Assembly: GCF_024227715.1 (NCBI RefSeq)
Contig: NZ_CP100448.1
Span: 2,253,655 to 2,317,654 of the forward strand
Direction of reading: 5' to 3'
Origin: Halomarina litorea
Lineage (GTDB): Archaea > Halobacteriota > Halobacteria > Halobacteriales > Haloarculaceae
Length of the DNA stretch: 64,000 nucleotides
Within the stretch, counting starts at the first letter, position 1. Each line of letters opens with the position of its first letter. The translations under genes were made by a program, and so were the position numbers. The notes under the pieces are model-generated. The model was not told where the DNA came from and did not search any database. It saw nothing but the letters and a program-made list of their open reading frames with translations. Positions 34,446 through 40,909 of this stretch are shown here, one piece after another.

Positions 34446-34470
34446 TGTTAGACAGAGAGCGTGTGTATCA
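34446..34470 (+). repeat. 27-bp repeat family, copy 1 (AGAGCGTG subtype)
   Basis: TGTTAGACAGAGAGCGTG and then TGTATCA (25 bases, two fewer than the other copies). It lies 17 bases beyond the 3' end of the first lipoprotein gene and points towards it. Forms an inverted pair with copy 2. Confidence 0.7.
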
Positions 34471-34487
34471 CGACCACTCGTCTCGGC

Positions 34488-34952
34488 TCAGCCAGAAGTA
34501 GTGGTCGGCGTGACGGCCCGACAGTCTTCCACGTCGCCCATCAGCCAGAGCACTTCGATTTCGTTGCTCTGGTCGGGGTATCCGACACGGACGGAGGCTT
34601 TGACGAGGCCCGACTGGTACCGTCCGTCGTCGAGAGCTGTCTCGACCCACCCATCAGACGACTCATGGCGTGCCCGTACGACGTACGGTCCGGTCGTGTC
34701 GCGCCAGACACAGGGGAGTCCCCCACCGTCGACGACACTCTCGCCAATGGCTTCGGTCTCCAGCGTTCGGTCGAGCACCGTCTCGCCGTCAGCATCGACC
34801 TGCACGGTGATGATGTGTGGCTCATCGTCCCAGTTCCCGACTTCAAGTCCACCGAGGCCGACGTGCTGCTCGCCGCCGAACAGTCCCGAGACGGTCGAAC
34901 AGCCAGCAGTCGCAGTCGTACCGAGCACTGCGAGGAGGGCACGGCGCTTCAT
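34488..34952 (-). CDS. Lipoprotein, paralogue 1
   Basis: A 154-residue exported lipoprotein: MKRRALLAVLGTTATAGCST has the positively charged N-region, hydrophobic core and lipobox (TAGC, Cys18). The beta-rich remainder contains VGNWDDEPHIITVQV and, at residues 88-102, GPYVVRARHESSDGW. The same 15 residues appear in the paralogue at 36249. Short conserved GG and Cys (CVWRD, VEDCRA) positions also match, perhaps a disulfide. The role is unknown; the N-terminal third resembles other haloarchaeal surface lipoproteins. It sits in an inverted-repeat-bounded unit (34446-35031). Confidence 0.72.
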   Translation of the reverse strand: MKRRALLAVLGTTATAGCSTVSGLFGGEQHVGLGGLEVGNWDDEPHIITVQVDADGETVLDRTLETEAIGESVVDGGGLPCVWRDTTGPYVVRARHESSDGWVETALDDGRYQSGLVKASVRVGYPDQSNEIEVLWLMGDVEDCRAVTPTTTSG

Positions 34953-35004
34953 ACAGGGAGTTGTTCACACGTGACAAGTACCTTCTGCTGGCTCCAACCT
35001 ACAG

Positions 35005-35031
35005 TGATACACTCGCGGCACACGTCTAACA
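35005..35031 (-). repeat. 27-bp repeat family, copy 2 (GCCGCGAG subtype)
   Basis: On the minus strand TGTTAGACGTGTGCCGCGAG followed by TGTATCA. It lies 52 bases upstream of the first lipoprotein start. Its outward extension (to about 35069) continues to match copy 3's extension with gaps. Confidence 0.75.
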
Positions 35032-35078
35032 GCTGAATCACGACGAACCGGTATGAAAGAAAGTGGCTGTCATCCCGC

Positions 35079-36076
35079 TCACACGCACTGGTAGCGTCGC
35101 TGCTGGCCACGCCCGGTCGCTGTGACGAGGTTGTACTGGACCATCTTCGCCAGATAGTTGCGGACCATCCGTTCGGACCGGGGGTCGTCGACGCGCCCGC
35201 GGTACGCGTCGTACAGTTCGGCAGGCGCGACTTCCTCTCGCTCGGCGATGATGTCGTAGACGACCCGCTGGTCGTCCGTGAGCGTCTCGACGTTGCGCTG
35301 GCGGACGACCGACTGCGCCTCAGGGACGACCCGGTCGATGACCGCGTTCGATACCGTCTCGTGACCCTCCCGTTCACTCCGTTCGACGGCCATCCGTAGG
35401 ACTTCGAGCCCGACCCGCGCGTCCCCCGCGGCGGCGTCGGCTATCCGTTCGAGTTGCCCATCCGAGACCGCCCCGTCACGCAGTCCCCACAGGACGCGGT
35501 CGGCCAAGATGGAGACGAGTTCATCCACGGTGTAGCGCGCGAATGAATCTGAACTGCCGTGCGGAGGCGACTGGCGAGGCGGTCGTCGAGCGGGTCGAAC
35601 AGTTCTTCGACGCGGTTGGCGATGAGCACCATCGTCACGCCCGACGTCCGGTGGAGTTCGTACAGCACGCGCTTATCGTCGAGCTGGTCGACCTCGTCGA
35701 GGATGACGACGTACGCGTCGGTATGCTCGCGCAGGCGTTCGACCAGTTCGTCCCGTGGTGTCGATTGGCGGTGGATATCGAAGGTCTGGTCGAGCCCTTC
35801 GAGTAGTCGGTAGAGCGTCTTGAAGCGGGTGTAGTCCTCCCAGCAGTTGACGTACTGGACGGTGAGGTCGGGGACGGTCGCCTTCAGCCGCTCTGTGACG
35901 ACGTTCGCGATGCACGTCTTTCCGACGCCGGACGGCCCGTACAGGAACGTCGTTTCGCCTTCGCGGTCGTCGGTGACGGGGTCGAGTGCGGCGGAGAGCG
36001 TCGTCACCTCGTGGTTGCGGTGGACGACGTCCCGTGGGACGAACTCGGGTTGGAGCACCCGTGCGTCGCGTATCAT
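35079..36076 (-). pseudogene. Frameshifted second orc1/cdc6 gene
   Basis: The N-terminal part ([20 protein letters not shown] ...) has Walker [11 protein letters not shown] near residue 48, Walker [12 protein letters not shown] near 125 and sensor-1 region [12 protein letters not shown]. Frame is lost near 35530-35545. The C-terminal frame resumes with [16 protein letters not shown] and runs through the winged-helix part ending YNLVTATGRGQQRRYQC. One added base would restore a typical ~332-residue Orc1/Cdc6. The only visible lesion is this shift, so a recent mutation or a sequence error is possible. It lies between the two inverted lipoprotein units. Confidence 0.8.
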
Positions 36077-36178
36077 GCGCGCGTGGTACGGTGTGTCGTG
36101 CTAAGAGCGTGATGGGGTCGTTTCCGGGTTTCCGATACTTGCCACCTCTTTCTTTCACCGTGACTCGTCTGATTCAAC

Positions 36179-36205
36179 TGTTAGACACGTGCCGCGAGTG
36201 TACCA
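36179..36205 (+). repeat. 27-bp repeat family, copy 3 (GCCGCGAG subtype)
   Basis: TGTTAGACACGTGCCGCGAG followed by TGTACCA. It is 43 bases upstream of the second lipoprotein start, mirroring copy 2. The two also match over the next ~38 bases outward (GATTCA, then CTTTCTTTCA), giving a ~65-bp imperfect inverted repeat around the orc gene. Confidence 0.75.
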
Positions 36206-36248
36206 GTCGTTGCACAACATATTTCGCTGCCAGTACTAACTGAAAGTC

Positions 36249-36755
36249 ATGCCCTCTCGTCGAACCGTCCTTGGAACAATGTGCGCAGTCGCTGCCAGTA
36301 GTTTCGCCGGTTGTTCAGCACTCTCGGATGTTATTGGCGGGGAACGCCATGCGCAACTCGCAGCCCTCACTATCGAGAATCAGGATACGAACCCGCATAC
36401 TGTAACAGCGCAGATAGAAGCAGCAGGAACAGTAGTCACGGAAGAATCCGTCCAGCTTGATGGGCGTGACGAGCAATTTATTGACTCTGAGTCGGTTCCG
36501 TGGTCCTGCCAGAACACGAACGGGCCGTACGTCGTTCGTGCCCGGCACGAGTCGTCCGACGGATGGGCTACAGTCGTCTTTGCAGAGACATTCGAACCGT
36601 CGCGCGTGGTCGAACTCACGGGTCGAGTCGGAGGGTACGACCAAGACGGCGACGAAATCACGTTCCTCCAACGATTGGATGACCCCTCTGGATGTTCGAC
36701 AGCAGAGACCAATTCTACCGAAGACCCCACCGATAACGCCGAGTCAGCACGGTAA
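36249..36755 (+). CDS. Lipoprotein, paralogue 2
   Basis: A 168-residue lipoprotein: MPSRRTVLGTMCAVAASSFA with lipobox FAGC (Cys22) and a TAT-like RRTVLG pattern. The domain layout parallels the gene at 34488: GGERHAQLAALTIENQDTNP versus GGEQHVGLGGLEVGNWDDEP, and an identical GPYVVRARHESSDGW at about residues 97-111. The C-terminus adds an acidic Ser/Thr/Asp tail (STEDPTDNAESAR). An ACATATTT box lies 27 bases before the ATG. Bounded by copies 3 and 5 of the repeat. Confidence 0.72.
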   Translation: MPSRRTVLGTMCAVAASSFAGCSALSDVIGGERHAQLAALTIENQDTNPHTVTAQIEAAGTVVTEESVQLDGRDEQFIDSESVPWSCQNTNGPYVVRARHESSDGWATVVFAETFEPSRVVELTGRVGGYDQDGDEITFLQRLDDPSGCSTAETNSTEDPTDNAESAR

Positions 36756-36760
36756 CAAAC

Positions 36761-36787
36761 TGATAGACCCACACTCTCTGTCAATCA
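36761..36787 (-). repeat. 27-bp repeat family, copy 5 (AGAGCGTG subtype, diverged)
   Basis: On the minus strand TGATTGACAGAGAGTGTGGG then TCTATCA, 21 of 27 identical to copy 4. It starts six bases after the second lipoprotein's stop codon and points back towards copy 3. Confidence 0.6.
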
Positions 36788-36840
36788 TTATCGGCATCGA
36801 CGAGCAAGTGTGATTTCACGCTAATTCGGAGTGACGTAAC

Positions 36841-36867
36841 TGCCTGAGTTGTGCCGCGAGTCCATCG
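36841..36867 (+). repeat. 27-bp repeat family, copy 6 (GCCGCGAG subtype, weak)
   Basis: TGCCTGAGTTGTGCCGCGAG followed by TCCATCG; 17 of 27 match copy 3, including an exact 11-base core GTGCCGCGAGT. It could pair with copy 4 to bound the small membrane-protein gene. Confidence 0.4.
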
Positions 36868-36922
36868 CGGGAACCGTGCCAAAACACAGGTTGAGCGGTC
36901 GTTCCCCACCCAACAGACCAGA

Positions 36923-37261
36923 CTATGTAGCGTTTCTACTTGGCTTCGCGGTCGCGCGGACGCCGAACCGGTATCCGGCGATAGTCAGGACGACGAGGAG
37001 TGCACTCAACATTACGTAGGTGAACGGAACCGTCCACGGATTTGTGACTGCGGCCTCACCTCGAACGATGTGAGTTGCGGCGAAGACCAACTGGCTGGAG
37101 TAGGCGAACGACAATGCTGCCCCAGCTCCGGTGACGAGGGCCGCTCCCAGTGCCCACGGGAGTCGGCTTCTTTCGTCGAGCGATGCCGAATCTCGGTATA
37201 CGAATGCGCCGACAGGCAGTGCGACAAGCAGACCAAACGCGAGCAGGTATGCGAGGTTCAC
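36923..37261 (-). CDS. Small three-helix membrane protein
   Basis: About 112 residues with three hydrophobic segments: LAYLLAFGLLVALPVGAFVY, LGAALVTGAGAALSFAYSS and YVMLSALLVVLTIAGYRFG. I recognise no family. The frame is open to 37357 (ATG), but that start would lie inside repeat copy 4. The GTG at 37261 (VNLAYLLAF) sits just before the first helix and is preferred. The gene lies inside the third repeat-bounded unit (36841-37376). No partner is adjacent. Confidence 0.5.
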   Translation of the reverse strand: MNLAYLLAFGLLVALPVGAFVYRDSASLDERSRLPWALGAALVTGAGAALSFAYSSQLVFAATHIVRGEAAVTNPWTVPFTYVMLSALLVVLTIAGYRFGVRATAKPSRNAT

Positions 37262-37349
37262 ATCACTGAAATTAGAGTTCTTACTTGTAGTCTTTTTCCC
37301 GAGTCTGTATGATGAGACCAACTCAGATTGTCTCAAGGCTACGTGCCAC

Positions 37350-37376
37350 TGATACACCCACGCTCTAAGTCTAACA
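37350..37376 (-). repeat. 27-bp repeat family, copy 4 (AGAGCGTG subtype)
   Basis: On the minus strand TGTTAGACTTAGAGCGTGGG then TGTATCA. This is the rightmost copy; it faces copy 6 across the membrane-protein gene. Confidence 0.7.
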
Positions 37377-37494
37377 ATACCGGCAATCGATGCGGCGGCC
37401 TGTTTCGCCGTTCACCGCGGTAACCCAGCGGCCCGGGCGGAAAAACGGCGACTACACACCTACTCGTATCACGTAGTCCATCTCCTGCTCCGGT

Positions 37495-38142
37495 ATGGGT
37501 GACTTGACTCCCATCGCGTTCGACATCGAAACGTCCGGCCTCGACCCCAGCGCGGTCGTGACCGTCGCGGGCATCGCGCTCCCGCTCGGGTCGTGGCTCG
37601 CACTCAACACCACGGGGCGCGAGGCAGCCTCCGACCGGCTCGAAGCCGACCTCGAACACGCCGCGGACTCCAATGTCCGCGTCGCCGTCTACCACTCAGA
37701 AGCCGACCTACTCCGCGGGCTCGACGCGTTCACCAGTGAGCATCTGAACGGCGACCGCCACTACCTCACGGCGTACAACGGCGAGACGTGGCGCGGCGGG
37801 TTCGACCTCCCGTTCGTCCGCTCGGCATGCGTGCGCCGGGACGTCGACTGGCCATTCCCTGATATGGCGTTCGCCGATACGATGACCATCGTCGACCGGT
37901 TCCACACGGGCGACGTGGGTGACCTCGTCGGGGTGTACGATGCACTCGTGGGTGAGGAGGACTGCGACCCATTCGACGACAGCGGGAGCGCGGTCGCGGC
38001 CCACGACTGCGGTGAGTGGCTCGACCTGCTGTTGCACAACCTCGCGGACATCGAACGCACCCGTGACCTCGCGCTACTGGCGGGGCGGTTCGTCGCGAAG
38101 TCCGACTTCCGTATGAAGAACCTCAGTCCTCCAGACCGGTAG
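37495..38142 (+). CDS. DEDD-family 3'-5' exonuclease-like protein
   Basis: A 215-residue RNase H-like nuclease. ExoI is IAFDIETSGLD (residues about 7-17, with the D-x-E pair), ExoII is LTAYNGETWRGGFDLPFVRSA near 93-112 and ExoIII lies around HNLADIERTRDLALL. This resembles the DnaQ-like/YprB group acting on DNA or RNA ends. It stands upstream of, and convergent with, the winged-helix regulator; the neighbours are a mixed set with no shared pathway. Confidence 0.75.
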   Translation: MGDLTPIAFDIETSGLDPSAVVTVAGIALPLGSWLALNTTGREAASDRLEADLEHAADSNVRVAVYHSEADLLRGLDAFTSEHLNGDRHYLTAYNGETWRGGFDLPFVRSACVRRDVDWPFPDMAFADTMTIVDRFHTGDVGDLVGVYDALVGEEDCDPFDDSGSAVAAHDCGEWLDLLLHNLADIERTRDLALLAGRFVAKSDFRMKNLSPPDR

Positions 38143-38227
38143 GGGGTCGACGCAGCGAAGCGAGACCGCATGCGCTCTCACCGTACCGGTAAGGTTGCGA
38201 GACAAATTGGTCGTGTCGGGCGTTCAC

Positions 38228-38674
38228 TCAGCCGCTCGAATCCTGATTCGTTCCGAAGCCACGGTGGAACTCCACCTCGAAGGAGGTCGTCGGTTCGTCT
38301 GCGACCAGCGGCGTCGTGTCATCGTCGTCACCCTCCAGTTCATCGCGCATGGCTGCGGCCTCATCGAGAAACTGTTGGCGGGCTTTCTTGTACAACTGGT
38401 AACTCGCGGTCAGGCCCCGTTCCTCCCACCAGAGCCGAAGCTTCGCTCCCCGAGGGGTGAGCAAATGCGTGTGTGTCGTCCCACGGTGGCCGCTGATAGC
38501 TTTCCGTTCGAGTAACGACGCGTCGCGCCCTTCTTCCAATCGCCGGGAAAGCGTCTGGTGACTCACAGGCAGTGCGTCATCCAATTCTGAGAACCGGGAC
38601 CCCCCGGGCTTCACTTCGCATAACAGCTCGATAGCACCTTTGCGGTCGAGATACTCAAGAGTAGGGTCGGGCAT
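38228..38674 (-). CDS. Winged-helix transcriptional regulator
   Basis: A 148-residue protein with an N-terminal wHTH: LEYLDRKGAIELLCEVKPGG, then SRFSELDDALPVSHQTLSRRLEEG (recognition helix) and a wing around HTHLLTPRGAKLRLWW. A charged helix (YQLYKKARQQFLDEAAAMRD) follows and may dimerise. It resembles haloarchaeal HxlR/PadR-like regulators. Divergent from the transposase-like gene at 38885; three dyad sites CTCAG-N3-CTGAG-like lie in the gap and are good candidates for its operators. Confidence 0.82.
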   Translation of the reverse strand: MPDPTLEYLDRKGAIELLCEVKPGGSRFSELDDALPVSHQTLSRRLEEGRDASLLERKAISGHRGTTHTHLLTPRGAKLRLWWEERGLTASYQLYKKARQQFLDEAAAMRDELEGDDDDTTPLVADEPTTSFEVEFHRGFGTNQDSSG

Positions 38675-38682
38675 ACGACCCT

Positions 38683-38695
38683 CAGTTTGTCAGCG
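38683..38695 (-). promoter_or_regulatory. Dyad operator-like site 1
   Basis: On the minus strand CTGACAAACTGAG, 11 of 13 identical to the palindromic site 3. It lies between the likely TATA box and the start codon of the regulator gene, where bound protein would block transcription of its own gene. Confidence 0.45.
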
Positions 38696-38717
38696 GCAGG
38701 CATAACTGCTGAGTTGA

Positions 38718-38730
38718 GTCAGGAACTGAG
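38718..38730 (+). promoter_or_regulatory. Dyad operator-like site 2
   Basis: GTCAGGAACTGAG, followed by TATACATTG. With site 3 it forms a 24-base direct repeat (38716-38739 versus 38846-38869, 19 of 24 identical). It lies just upstream of the regulator gene's expected TATA position. Confidence 0.5.
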
Positions 38731-38847
38731 TATACATTGGACCATACGTCACCTCGCCCGAGAGACAGTTCTGACACCCTAGATTCAATAGGGGGACGTT
38801 TGAGTGGTTTTTTGATGGAAACGCGGAAACCAGACGCTGACACTTAA

Positions 38848-38860
38848 CTCAGAAACTGAG
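38848..38860 (+). promoter_or_regulatory. Dyad operator-like site 3
   Basis: CTCAGAAACTGAG, a perfect palindrome with 5-base arms around AAA. It covers the position expected for the transposase-like gene's TATA box (start 38885). Confidence 0.55.
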
Positions 38861-38884
38861 CATAGATTGCTCTAATAACGCGCG

Positions 38885-40909
38885 ATGAGACACGGAGAGT
38901 CAGACCCCCCTCATGAGTCACGCCCTGCGGTCACAGACGAGTCGCAGGCTCGTGAGGAGGCTGAGGTCTGGGCGTACGAGGTGGATGACCACTCGTTCGA
39001 CATCTGCTACGACCTGTACGTGTCGGTGCCACACGAGGACGCACCGTTCTCAGTCAGTCTCTGGTACGACCATCCAGCCGAGGGGACTTCGACGCTTGAA
39101 GACCTCATCGGCGAGCTTGTGTTCAACGACTCGCTGCCCGACGACCGAGCGCCGTGGCATCGCAACACCGGGCCACTCGAACCGATACTGAGAGCACACG
39201 TCCTCCGACTCGCGAAGGGCTGGCGGGAGAAGCGACTCGCGCAGTTCTTCGAAACGAACCCGGAGGTCGCCTACCAGTATGGCTTCGTCGAACCAGCAGA
39301 CGATGGAACGCTCGACGCCGCTCCGATGAAACAGTCGCGACTGTGGGAGCTGTGGAACGAGTCGCTGCCCGAGGTGACGAAAGCGGTCTGCCGTGCGGTC
39401 CTCTCAGAAGTTGTTGTTATCGCGCGTGACCACGGTATCCCCGTGCCTCACGAGGCATTCCAACCCGTCGAACAGACGGGCAGGAAGCAAACGAAAGCGG
39501 AGCTGCATGTCGAGACGCTTGAGAAGGTGTGGGGGCAAGCCAAGCCAATCATCACACAAGAGTTCAGCCTCAACCGCGGTCCGAACTGGCAGATTCACGA
39601 AAATCGGTACTTCGAACAGCATGCGTACATGGGGAGCCGCGAGGACATGTACGCCGAAAGCGGGCACAAATCGTTCCTTGCCGCTACAGACCGGCGGCAC
39701 GAGCGACCCCCGACCGGTTCCTCACACCGTCACCAGATAGGGAAGCTCACTATCGCCGGGATTCGAGCGATGTTTCAGAACACGGCCCGGGAAATCGTAC
39801 GACTCGCGCGCTACGATTCCGAACTCGTCGGCAAGCTCTGGGTCGCTATCGACGTGACAAAAGGGCGCGAATTTTTCGGTGATATCGAGGGGTACGAAGA
39901 CGAGATTCTCGGATACAAGGACCTGAAACGCTACTTCCAGTGGGCGGTCATCAAAATCATCGGATTCGATGTCCCGATTATCCTTGACGTGATTCCCCGG
40001 GTGAAGGGCCAGACGAAAGCCGAAATCGTCGACGAACTTCTCACGACCGCGTTGGACCTCACCGACGGGGTGGAACTCGTGCTGATGGACAGCGAGTTCG
40101 ATTCAGACGGTGTCAAGGATGTCTGCGCGGCACATGGCGTTCACAATCTGAACCCCGCGAAACTCCACGCGAACGGTGAGGAGATGCGAATCATTCGCTG
40201 GATGAAACGCAACAACATCGATATTCACGTTGTTGAACGTGAGACCCCGGAGGGCATGCCCACGCGAAAGCAGATTTTCGTTCCGAAATCGACGGTCGAC
40301 GAGGACGCAGACGAGAACGAGAATGGCGCTGACGACGATTGCGATGGGGACACTGCGCAGTCAGAGCGAGACTCCTCTGCTATCAGAGACGACCTGATGA
40401 ACCGATGGGGCGTCGCTCTTGATGACGATGAGACCTCGGGGCATGACGAGGCGCGTCTTTCGCCGGTCGGTGAGGTTCTCGCAGAGATTTGTGAAGATGA
40501 AGACGAACGGGCGAGTGAGATTGTTGGAACAGCAGAGGAGTCGGATATCGTCGTGTTCGATACGAGTCATCCGGCAGTCACGGAGCAAGGCGAGGGACCG
40601 AACGAGATGGACGGGATGTCGTTCATCCAGATGGCAGCGCGAACGGTCCGCTGGTATCGACATCGGTGGGGCATTGAGAACGGCTTCAAGAAGCTAAAGC
40701 ACTTTATGGTGCAGACGACGTCGAAGCGCCAGCAGTACCGGTTTTTCAACTTCGTGTTCGCGTGTGTGCTGTACAACGTGTGGCGATTGGTCGACCTGTT
40801 GGTGACGCTCGCGTTGAAGGGCGAGTATGCGACGTACGAACCGACGATTGATGCGAACCTGTTCCTCACGGTGACTGACAAGTACTACGGGTGGGACCCC
40901 CCGGACTGA
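38885..40909 (+). CDS. Large DDE transposase-like protein
   Basis: A 674-residue protein with an RNase H-like DDE core in the second half. The first Asp is in LWVAIDVTKGREFFG, the second in LVLMDSEFDSDGVKD, and the Glu in YRHRWGIENGFKKLKHF (IS4-like signature), followed by the helical end VFACVLYNVWRLVDLL. An unusual Asp/Glu-rich insertion (about residues 480-550) lies before the Glu. The N-terminal ~200 residues are not recognisable. No terminal inverted repeats or target duplication were found on either side, so this may be a stranded or adapted transposase rather than an intact insertion sequence. Confidence 0.8.
   Translation: MRHGESDPPHESRPAVTDESQAREEAEVWAYEVDDHSFDICYDLYVSVPHEDAPFSVSLWYDHPAEGTSTLEDLIGELVFNDSLPDDRAPWHRNTGPLEPILRAHVLRLAKGWREKRLAQFFETNPEVAYQYGFVEPADDGTLDAAPMKQSRLWELWNESLPEVTKAVCRAVLSEVVVIARDHGIPVPHEAFQPVEQTGRKQTKAELHVETLEKVWGQAKPIITQEFSLNRGPNWQIHENRYFEQHAYMGSREDMYAESGHKSFLAATDRRHERPPTGSSHRHQIGKLTIAGIRAMFQNTAREIVRLARYDSELVGKLWVAIDVTKGREFFGDIEGYEDEILGYKDLKRYFQWAVIKIIGFDVPIILDVIPRVKGQTKAEIVDELLTTALDLTDGVELVLMDSEFDSDGVKDVCAAHGVHNLNPAKLHANGEEMRIIRWMKRNNIDIHVVERETPEGMPTRKQIFVPKSTVDEDADENENGADDDCDGDTAQSERDSSAIRDDLMNRWGVALDDDETSGHDEARLSPVGEVLAEICEDEDERASEIVGTAEESDIVVFDTSHPAVTEQGEGPNEMDGMSFIQMAARTVRWYRHRWGIENGFKKLKHFMVQTTSKRQQYRFFNFVFACVLYNVWRLVDLLVTLALKGEYATYEPTIDANLFLTVTDKYYGWDPPD

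What the first reader, a model, noticed from the sequence alone, without database searches (positions are those of the whole stretch)
34446..37376. Three small cassettes bounded by a two-subtype 27-bp inverted repeat
Copies of TGTTAGAC-N8-N4-TGTATCA at 34446(+), 35005(-), 36179(+), 36761(-), 36841(+, weak) and 37350(-) form three inverted pairs. Each pair encloses one gene of 0.34-0.51 kb in a unit of 586, 609 or 536 bases: lipoprotein 1, lipoprotein 2 and a small membrane protein. Each unit has one GCCGCGAG-type end and one AGAGCGTG-type end, as if the units had defined left and right ends. No transposase is inside them. This could be a family of mobile cargo cassettes, or the repeats could be origin boxes of the adjacent orc gene, or both.
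Basis: partly seen in the sequence, partly recalled or inferred. Interest (0 to 1): 0.8.

Follow-up and report, generated by a model that had tools for sequence, protein, structure and literature searches.

The report
Haloarchaeal two-site gene-cassette exchange system
The three small units in the window belong to a large family of swappable gene cassettes in salt-loving archaea, each bordered by two different recombination sites, which look like a natural gene-capture system (similar in effect to integrons but built from other parts) run by a relative of a virus DNA-inverting enzyme.

Summary
The genome is a Halomarina (haloarchaeon). Both 27-bp repeat types recur across its replicons and form long one-way arrays in sister species. 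Among 338 sites examined, neighbouring sites form 130 inward-facing pairs, every one with one AGA-type and one GCC-type end, never two alike. Each site is an imperfect palindrome around one of only two 8-bp cores (AGAGCGTG or GTGCCGCG). Loci with the same flanks but different cassettes, and cassettes shared between loci, place the exchange inside that core: the signature of tyrosine recombination between heterospecific lox-like sites. Window cassette 3 lies alone elsewhere in H. oriensis; the orthologous orc locus in H. rubra holds unrelated cassettes. A short tyrosine recombinase related to phiCh1 Int1 sits between two arrays in sister species, exactly where orc sits here. Halobium salinum, of another family, has the same layout with different arms. 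The origin-box reading fails: 31 of 40 own-genome sites lie more than 3 kb from any orc. It works like integrons or Acinetobacter dif modules but is a member of neither. The enzyme-to-site link is inferred, nothing was tested at the bench, and this genome lacks the enzyme.

The parts
34446..34470 (+). AGA-type site (core AGAGCGTG), 2-bp-short copy; outer end of cassette 1
34488..34952 (-). cassette 1 gene, 154-aa TAT-type lipoprotein
   Evidence: no Pfam family
35005..35031 (-). GCC-type site (core GTGCCGCG), orc-proximal end of cassette 1
35032..35064 (-). P arm (TTTCTTTCA...GTGATTCAGC), conserved outer arm of hub-proximal GCC sites
35079..36076 (-). orc1/cdc6-type gene in the hub position between two GCC sites; frameshifted by a 1-bp deletion near 35548
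36146..36178 (+). P arm, second copy, inverted relative to the first
36179..36205 (+). GCC-type site, hub-proximal end of cassette 2
36249..36755 (+). cassette 2 gene, 168-aa TAT-type lipoprotein, same protein family as cassette 1
36761..36787 (-). AGA-type site, outer end of cassette 2
36788..36840 (+). 53-bp Q+P spacer of the composite junction between cassettes 2 and 3
36841..36867 (+). GCC-type site (degenerate arm), inner end of cassette 3
36923..37357 (-). cassette 3 gene, small membrane protein with weak DUF2231 similarity; the cassette is 86% identical to L118 in H. oriensis
37350..37376 (-). AGA-type site, outer end of cassette 3
37377..37400 (-). Q arm (ATACCGGCAATCGATGC), outer arm of the AGA end

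Best explanation
The units are mobile gene cassettes of a haloarchaeal site-specific recombination system. Each cassette has one AGA site and one GCC site, facing each other. Each site is a complete lox-like site: two inverted 8-bp recombinase arms around an 8-bp asymmetric overlap, and the overlap differs between the two types. Recombination is expected only AGA x AGA or GCC x GCC. From this follow (inferred) the moves: between two molecules, a pair of crossovers swaps one cassette for another and leaves the flanks intact (natural recombinase-mediated cassette exchange); in arrays, direct repeats of one site type release or take up circles carrying a cassette and its composite AGA-spacer-GCC junction; and two inverted GCC sites flip the hub between arrays. 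The likely enzyme is the short phiCh1-Int1-type tyrosine recombinase found at the hub in sister species. Shown: site architecture, pairing rule, arrays, precise exchange of cassettes, crossover zone, recombinase position. Inferred: that this enzyme acts on these sites, the circular intermediate, and double-crossover exchange. In this genome the enzyme is absent, so its cassettes are at present immobile or moved in trans.
For: Pairing: 130 inward heterotypic pairs, 0 inward homotypic. Only two cores: of 253 sites defined by arms alone, 152 AGA, 98 GCC, 3 other (3 expected by shuffle); core positions 91-100% conserved while positions 9-10 and 19 vary. Crossover: 4 of 4 same-flank pairs (94-100% flank identity) match at positions 1-18 and differ at 19; same-cassette pairs (85-100%) match 93% at 19-27 but share the dinucleotide at 9-10 in only 4 of 10. 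Exchange at fixed loci: L042/L047 and L115/L137 (both flanks), window/L038 and L051/L052 carry cassette proteins with no blastp hit; at the ferredoxin-aRF1 gap G000, G001 and G007 hold three different cassettes. Window cassette 3 matches L118 (86%), identity ending inside the sites. Arrays run one way, up to 30 sites in 12 kb. Recombinase hub AGA-GCC-int-GCC-AGA in G001, G006, G007 and Halobium, catalytic R K H R W Y invariant in 16 relatives, tyrosine-recombinase fold. The three genomes with an intact or near-intact enzyme have 40-48 GCC sites; those without have 13 or fewer. Halobium has the same cores and pairing with different arms and 93-95-bp junctions.
Against: No recombination was observed; the link from enzyme to sites rests on position and co-occurrence. 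The window's genome and G005 have sites but no such enzyme. Some isolated units are flipped relative to the P and Q outer arms, which core-only recombination does not explain, and no joined empty P/Q site was found. The crossover mapping rests on few high-identity pairs. Cross-species exchange could partly reflect very old replacement.
Confidence: 0.87

Rival explanations
1. The units are non-autonomous transposons (MITE-like) with 27-bp terminal inverted repeats, moved in trans by a DDE or similar transposase.
For: Inverted ends, no transposase inside, dispersed copies.
Against: Two ends with different fixed cores and never two alike; exchange point inside the site, not at its outer edge; different cassettes between identical flanks; discrete composite junctions; no consistent target duplication was seen by eye in the flanks.
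Confidence: 0.05
2. The repeats are origin recognition boxes of the adjacent orc gene.
For: Two orc copies here and one in H. rubra are flanked by inverted GCC sites.
Against: 31 of 40 own-genome sites are more than 3 kb from any orc; only 2 of 12 orc hits have sites; hundreds of sites bound cassettes in sister species; no G-string; the same hub position holds a recombinase elsewhere.
Confidence: 0.02
3. It is a true integron: IntI with attC and attI sites.
For: One-way cassette arrays, mostly one gene per cassette; the outer arm GTTAGAC/GTCTAAC fits the integron core GTTRRRY/RYYYAAC (recalled, not a test).
Against: The recombinase has no hit to an integron-integrase model and only a weak XerA/XerC-like match; sites are strongly conserved in sequence with two fixed cores; core order is inside-out relative to attC; the hub feeds arrays on both sides.
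Confidence: 0.03
4. Cassette turnover is ordinary homologous recombination between repeated flanks, with the 27-mers merely transcription or structural signals of lipoprotein genes.
For: Many cassettes carry lipoprotein genes, and some flanks are repeats.
Against: Identity between shared cassettes stops inside the 27-mer, too short for homologous recombination; cassette genes read in both directions relative to AGA/GCC (77 vs 53); cargo is diverse.
Confidence: 0.03

Closest known systems
phiCh1/phiH1 Int1 tail-fibre invertible segment (haloviruses)
   Same: Homologous short tyrosine recombinase (42-50% identity by tblastn to phiCh1, ChaoS9 and HCTV-5 copies), central gene between inverted repeats with paired modules on both sides (PMC6210493).
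   Different: There one segment flips between two tail-fibre genes; here two site types, many exchangeable cassettes, arrays on chromosomes and plasmids.
Acinetobacter dif (pdif) modules
   Same: Small gene modules bounded by inverted ~28-bp tyrosine-recombinase sites, no enzyme inside, modules shuffled between sites with like spacers; a replication module can itself be bounded by sites (PMC13141974).
   Different: Those use host XerCD, 6-bp spacers of many sequences and alternating C and D modules; here two fixed 8-bp cores define left and right ends, junctions have conserved spacers, and a dedicated recombinase sits at the hub.
Integrons, including those reported in archaeal MAGs
   Same: Tandem one-way arrays of short cassettes next to a tyrosine recombinase gene (PMC9668308).
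   Different: Different recombinase family without an IntI match, sequence-conserved two-core sites instead of folded attC, arrays on both sides of the hub.
Engineered Cre/lox cassette exchange with heterospecific sites
   Same: Inverted arms around an 8-bp overlap; two incompatible overlaps bound each cassette (own knowledge).
   Different: Engineered versus natural; the enzyme here has no recognisable N-terminal domain and only distant fold similarity to Cre.

Membership tests
Integron | IntI-type integrase | tested here: not met
   NCBIfam: only weak XerA_Arch/XerC/XerD matches far below cut-off and no integron-integrase hit; Pfam PF00589 only
Integron | attC sites (structure-conserved, folded single strand) | tested here: inconclusive
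   Sites are sequence-conserved with two cores; no Rfam match in arrays; folding of composite sites and an attC model were not run
Integron | tandem one-way cassette arrays beside the recombinase gene | tested here: met
dif module | XerC/XerD 11-6-11 sites acted on by host Xer | tested here: not met
   27-bp sites with 8-bp cores and a different arm layout; a dedicated non-Xer recombinase at hubs
dif module | modules bounded by inverted sites without internal enzyme | tested here: met
phiCh1 Int1 recombinase family | homologous short tyrosine recombinase with catalytic R, K, H, R, W, Y | tested here: met
phiCh1 Int1 invertible segment | recombinase gene between inverted sites | tested here: met
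   G001, G006, G007 and Halobium; the hub is inverted relative to a 99.9% identical flank between L051 and L052
phiCh1 Int1 invertible segment | inversion carried out by the enzyme | not testable with these tools
   needs a bench test
IS/MITE transposon | matching terminal repeats with target duplication | tested here: not met
   Ends differ by fixed cores; no consistent duplication seen by eye in flanks
Haloarchaeal replication origin (ORB) | boxes adjacent to orc with a G-string | tested here: not met

The most novel reading that the evidence does not exclude
A naturally evolved recombinase-mediated cassette exchange platform: two incompatible 8-bp overlaps give every cassette a defined left and right end, so a phage-type invertase has become a third, archaeal gene-capture system independent of integrons and dif modules, including hub modules in which a replication initiator takes the place of the recombinase.
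Probability: 0.55. Interest if true: 0.92.

Novelty: new variant of a known kind. Interest (0 to 1): 0.86.

Why it matters
It would be a gene-capture system in cultured haloarchaea that integron searches would not see, because it uses neither an IntI-like enzyme nor attC-type sites. It shows how a simple virus invertase could evolve into a cassette platform, gives a testable mechanism for rapid turnover of secreted and membrane proteins (many cassettes are lipoproteins), and offers a candidate salt-tolerant pair of orthogonal recombination sites for archaeal genetics.

Tried and rejected
Origin boxes: rejected by distribution. tRNA targets: one tRNA near 17 own-genome loci. Expression signals: cassette genes read in either direction. 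Empty P/Q target: pattern search across the genus gave no convincing site; at the ferredoxin-aRF1 gap the genomes without sites have diverged intergenic DNA, so no clean empty site could be read. Target duplications: looked for by eye in flanks, none consistent. Arrays around distant Int1 relatives in other genera: single inverted repeats flank some of them but no arrays with Halomarina-type sites were seen. Defence function of eight cassette proteins: no PADLOC hit. Rfam scan of three arrays: none. Literature was searched only in the open-access library; no description of such arrays was found.
Full report
CHECK OF THE OBSERVATION. In the window's own genome (3.88 Mb, window = C1:2253655-2317654) the loose pattern TGTTAGACN12TGTATCA with up to 3 mismatches hits 64 times and its reversed control 5 times.

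WHAT THE SITES ARE. With weight matrices I collected 338 sites in fetched loci of five Halomarina genomes and the int locus of Halobium salinum. Adjacent sites at least 130 bp apart form 130 inward pairs; all 130 have one AGA and one GCC end, and none has two alike. Unit length is 252-4885 bp, median 633. Outward pairs of two GCC sites occur 9 times; those examined include the hubs described below. A further 64 close pairs are composite junctions AGA-spacer-GCC between tandem units. Their spacing is discrete and depends on the lineage: mostly 36-39 or 25 bp in G006, 80-82 bp in G001, G005 and G007. The window junction at 36761-36867 has spacing 80.

Per-position conservation shows the anatomy: arms TGTTAGAC and GT(C/G)TATCA, a variable dinucleotide at 9-10, an 8-bp core at 11-18 conserved at 91-100%, and a variable base at 19. 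Searching by arms alone gave 253 sites: 152 with core AGAGCGTG, 98 with GTGCCGCG and 3 others, when shuffled sequence gives 3. An asymmetric 8-bp core between inverted arms is the layout of a tyrosine-recombinase site such as lox (established knowledge of that family).

CROSSOVER POINT. In four pairs of loci with 94-100% identical flanks but different cassettes, site positions 1-18 are identical and position 19 always differs. In same-cassette pairs (85-100% identity) at different loci, positions 19-27 agree at 93%, while the dinucleotide at 9-10 agrees in only 4 of 10. The switch from flank-linked to cassette-linked sequence therefore lies within or at the edge of the core. The number of such close pairs is small.

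CASSETTES MOVE. Alignments between loci stop at the sites. L042 and L047 share both flanks (83-86%) but not their contents; L115 and L137 likewise (83-89%). The protein sequences of these contents have no blastp hit at 1e-3, so they were most likely replaced, not merely diverged. L115, L137 and the own-genome unit L002 all sit between a ferredoxin gene and the aRF1 gene, with three different cassettes. For the window itself: L038 in H. rubra is the orthologous locus (orc hub 89-90%, right flank 87%) with unrelated cassettes; and window cassette 3 recurs in H. oriensis at another place, 86% identical over the unit only, identity fading inside the sites. Long arrays keep one direction: 30 of 30 sites in L032, and arrays running away from the hub on either side in L034.

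CARGO. Of 130 cassettes, roughly a third carry a lipobox-type signal (44 by a simple pattern) and many others small membrane proteins. Larger ones carry a bile-acid-type symporter, Na+/H+ antiporter, aminotransferase, 5'-nucleotidase, oxidoreductases, an alpha/beta hydrolase and a beta-lactamase-family protein. Genes read in both directions (77 with GCC upstream, 53 the other way), although the single best reading frame per unit was chosen by a rough score. At the 1e-5 level 79 of the cassette proteins are singletons.

RECOMBINASE. A short tyrosine recombinase (about 230-290 aa) lies between two outward arrays as AGA-cassette-GCC-int-GCC-cassette-AGA in G006 (L034), G001 (L052) and G007 (L051; that copy carries one stop codon). 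The distances from site to gene (97 and 41 bp in L051) resemble those of orc in the window (102 and 47 bp). Damaged copies flank other arrays (L043, L038, L048). Sequence: PF00589 only, weak Xer similarity, no integron-integrase match. Relatives occur in many haloarchaea and haloviruses; those of phiCh1, ChaoS9 and HCTV-5 are 42-50% identical. In phiCh1 and phiH1 the homologue Int1 is the central gene of a tail-fibre invertible segment flanked by inverted repeats (PMC6210493). Six catalytic-type residues are invariant in 16 relatives. The predicted model (mean pLDDT 75, most of the catalytic part above 80) matches solved tyrosine recombinases, among them Tn1549 integrase and XerA, with no ordered N-terminal domain. 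Genomes with an intact or near-intact enzyme have 40-48 GCC sites; G000 has 13, G005 has 7, G002 has 4, G003 and G004 have none.

A SECOND FAMILY. Among 391 class members only Halomarina and G277 have repeated AGA cores. G277 corresponds to Halobium salinum (contig of 428036 bp in both), which carries a 75-76% identical enzyme. It has the same cores, the same inward pairing, arrays with 93-95 bp junctions, and different arms (TCCTAGAG). Arms that change while the cores and plan stay is what a recombinase and its sites evolving together would give.

THE ORC QUESTION. orc is a hub module flanked by GCC sites and P arms, like int. The window copy is frameshifted; the C1:437 copy is intact. 31 of 40 own-genome sites lie more than 3 kb from any orc, and haloarchaeal ORBs are described with a G-string that these sites lack (PMC3528665). 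In Acinetobacter dif modules the replication backbone is itself a module (PMC13141974); an orc hub could be the equivalent, which is untested.

OPEN POINTS. Terminal sites carry conserved outer arms: P next to GCC and Q next to AGA, but a subset of isolated units is flipped. This is not explained by core-specific recombination. No joined empty P/Q site was found. Which enzyme acts in the window's genome is unknown; it has no Int1-type gene. All mechanism beyond the sequence patterns is inference.

KNOWN OR NEW. It works like integrons and dif modules, but tested defining features of both (IntI type; Xer-type sites) are not met. The enzyme belongs to a known family with a known inversion role. 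I found no description of such arrays in the open-access library, which does not include most subscription journals. I therefore rate it a new variant of a known kind, with a substantial chance that the two-core exchange principle is new.

Noticed in passing
window 37347-39654 and C1:3123623-3125933 (L009): The flank right of cassette 3 (RNase-H-like gene, HxlR-type regulator) is duplicated at 86% beside the other orc hub at the C1 contig start; the cassettes between hub and flank differ.
   Followed up: partly
window 38885-40909: A 674-aa DDE_Tnp_1-type transposase ORF lies close to the cassette block but outside it.
   Followed up: no
L115, L120, L122, L126, L132, L137, L140, L142, L146, L147, L002: Isolated units inserted in the opposite orientation relative to the P and Q outer arms, often in intergenic repeats of the type GGTGAACCGCGCTCG..CGCGGATGC.
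   Followed up: partly
L161 2310-2417: A single AGA site with a Q arm on both sides next to a P-GCC site, like the product of recombination between two AGA sites.
   Followed up: no
L037 4028-4281: A hub with two GCC sites and P arms but only about 200 bp between them; it looks like an int hub that lost its gene, still next to a 21-site array.
   Followed up: partly
L010 1721-5339 (own genome C2): A 3.6-kb cassette with an SBF-type transporter, an HxlR-like regulator and a TnpB-like ORF.
   Followed up: partly
L070, L082, L090, L108, L111 around the int gene: Int1-type genes in other haloarchaea are flanked by single inverted palindromes such as TGCTGAAT-N11-ATTCAGCA, possibly minimal invertible elements.
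   Followed up: partly
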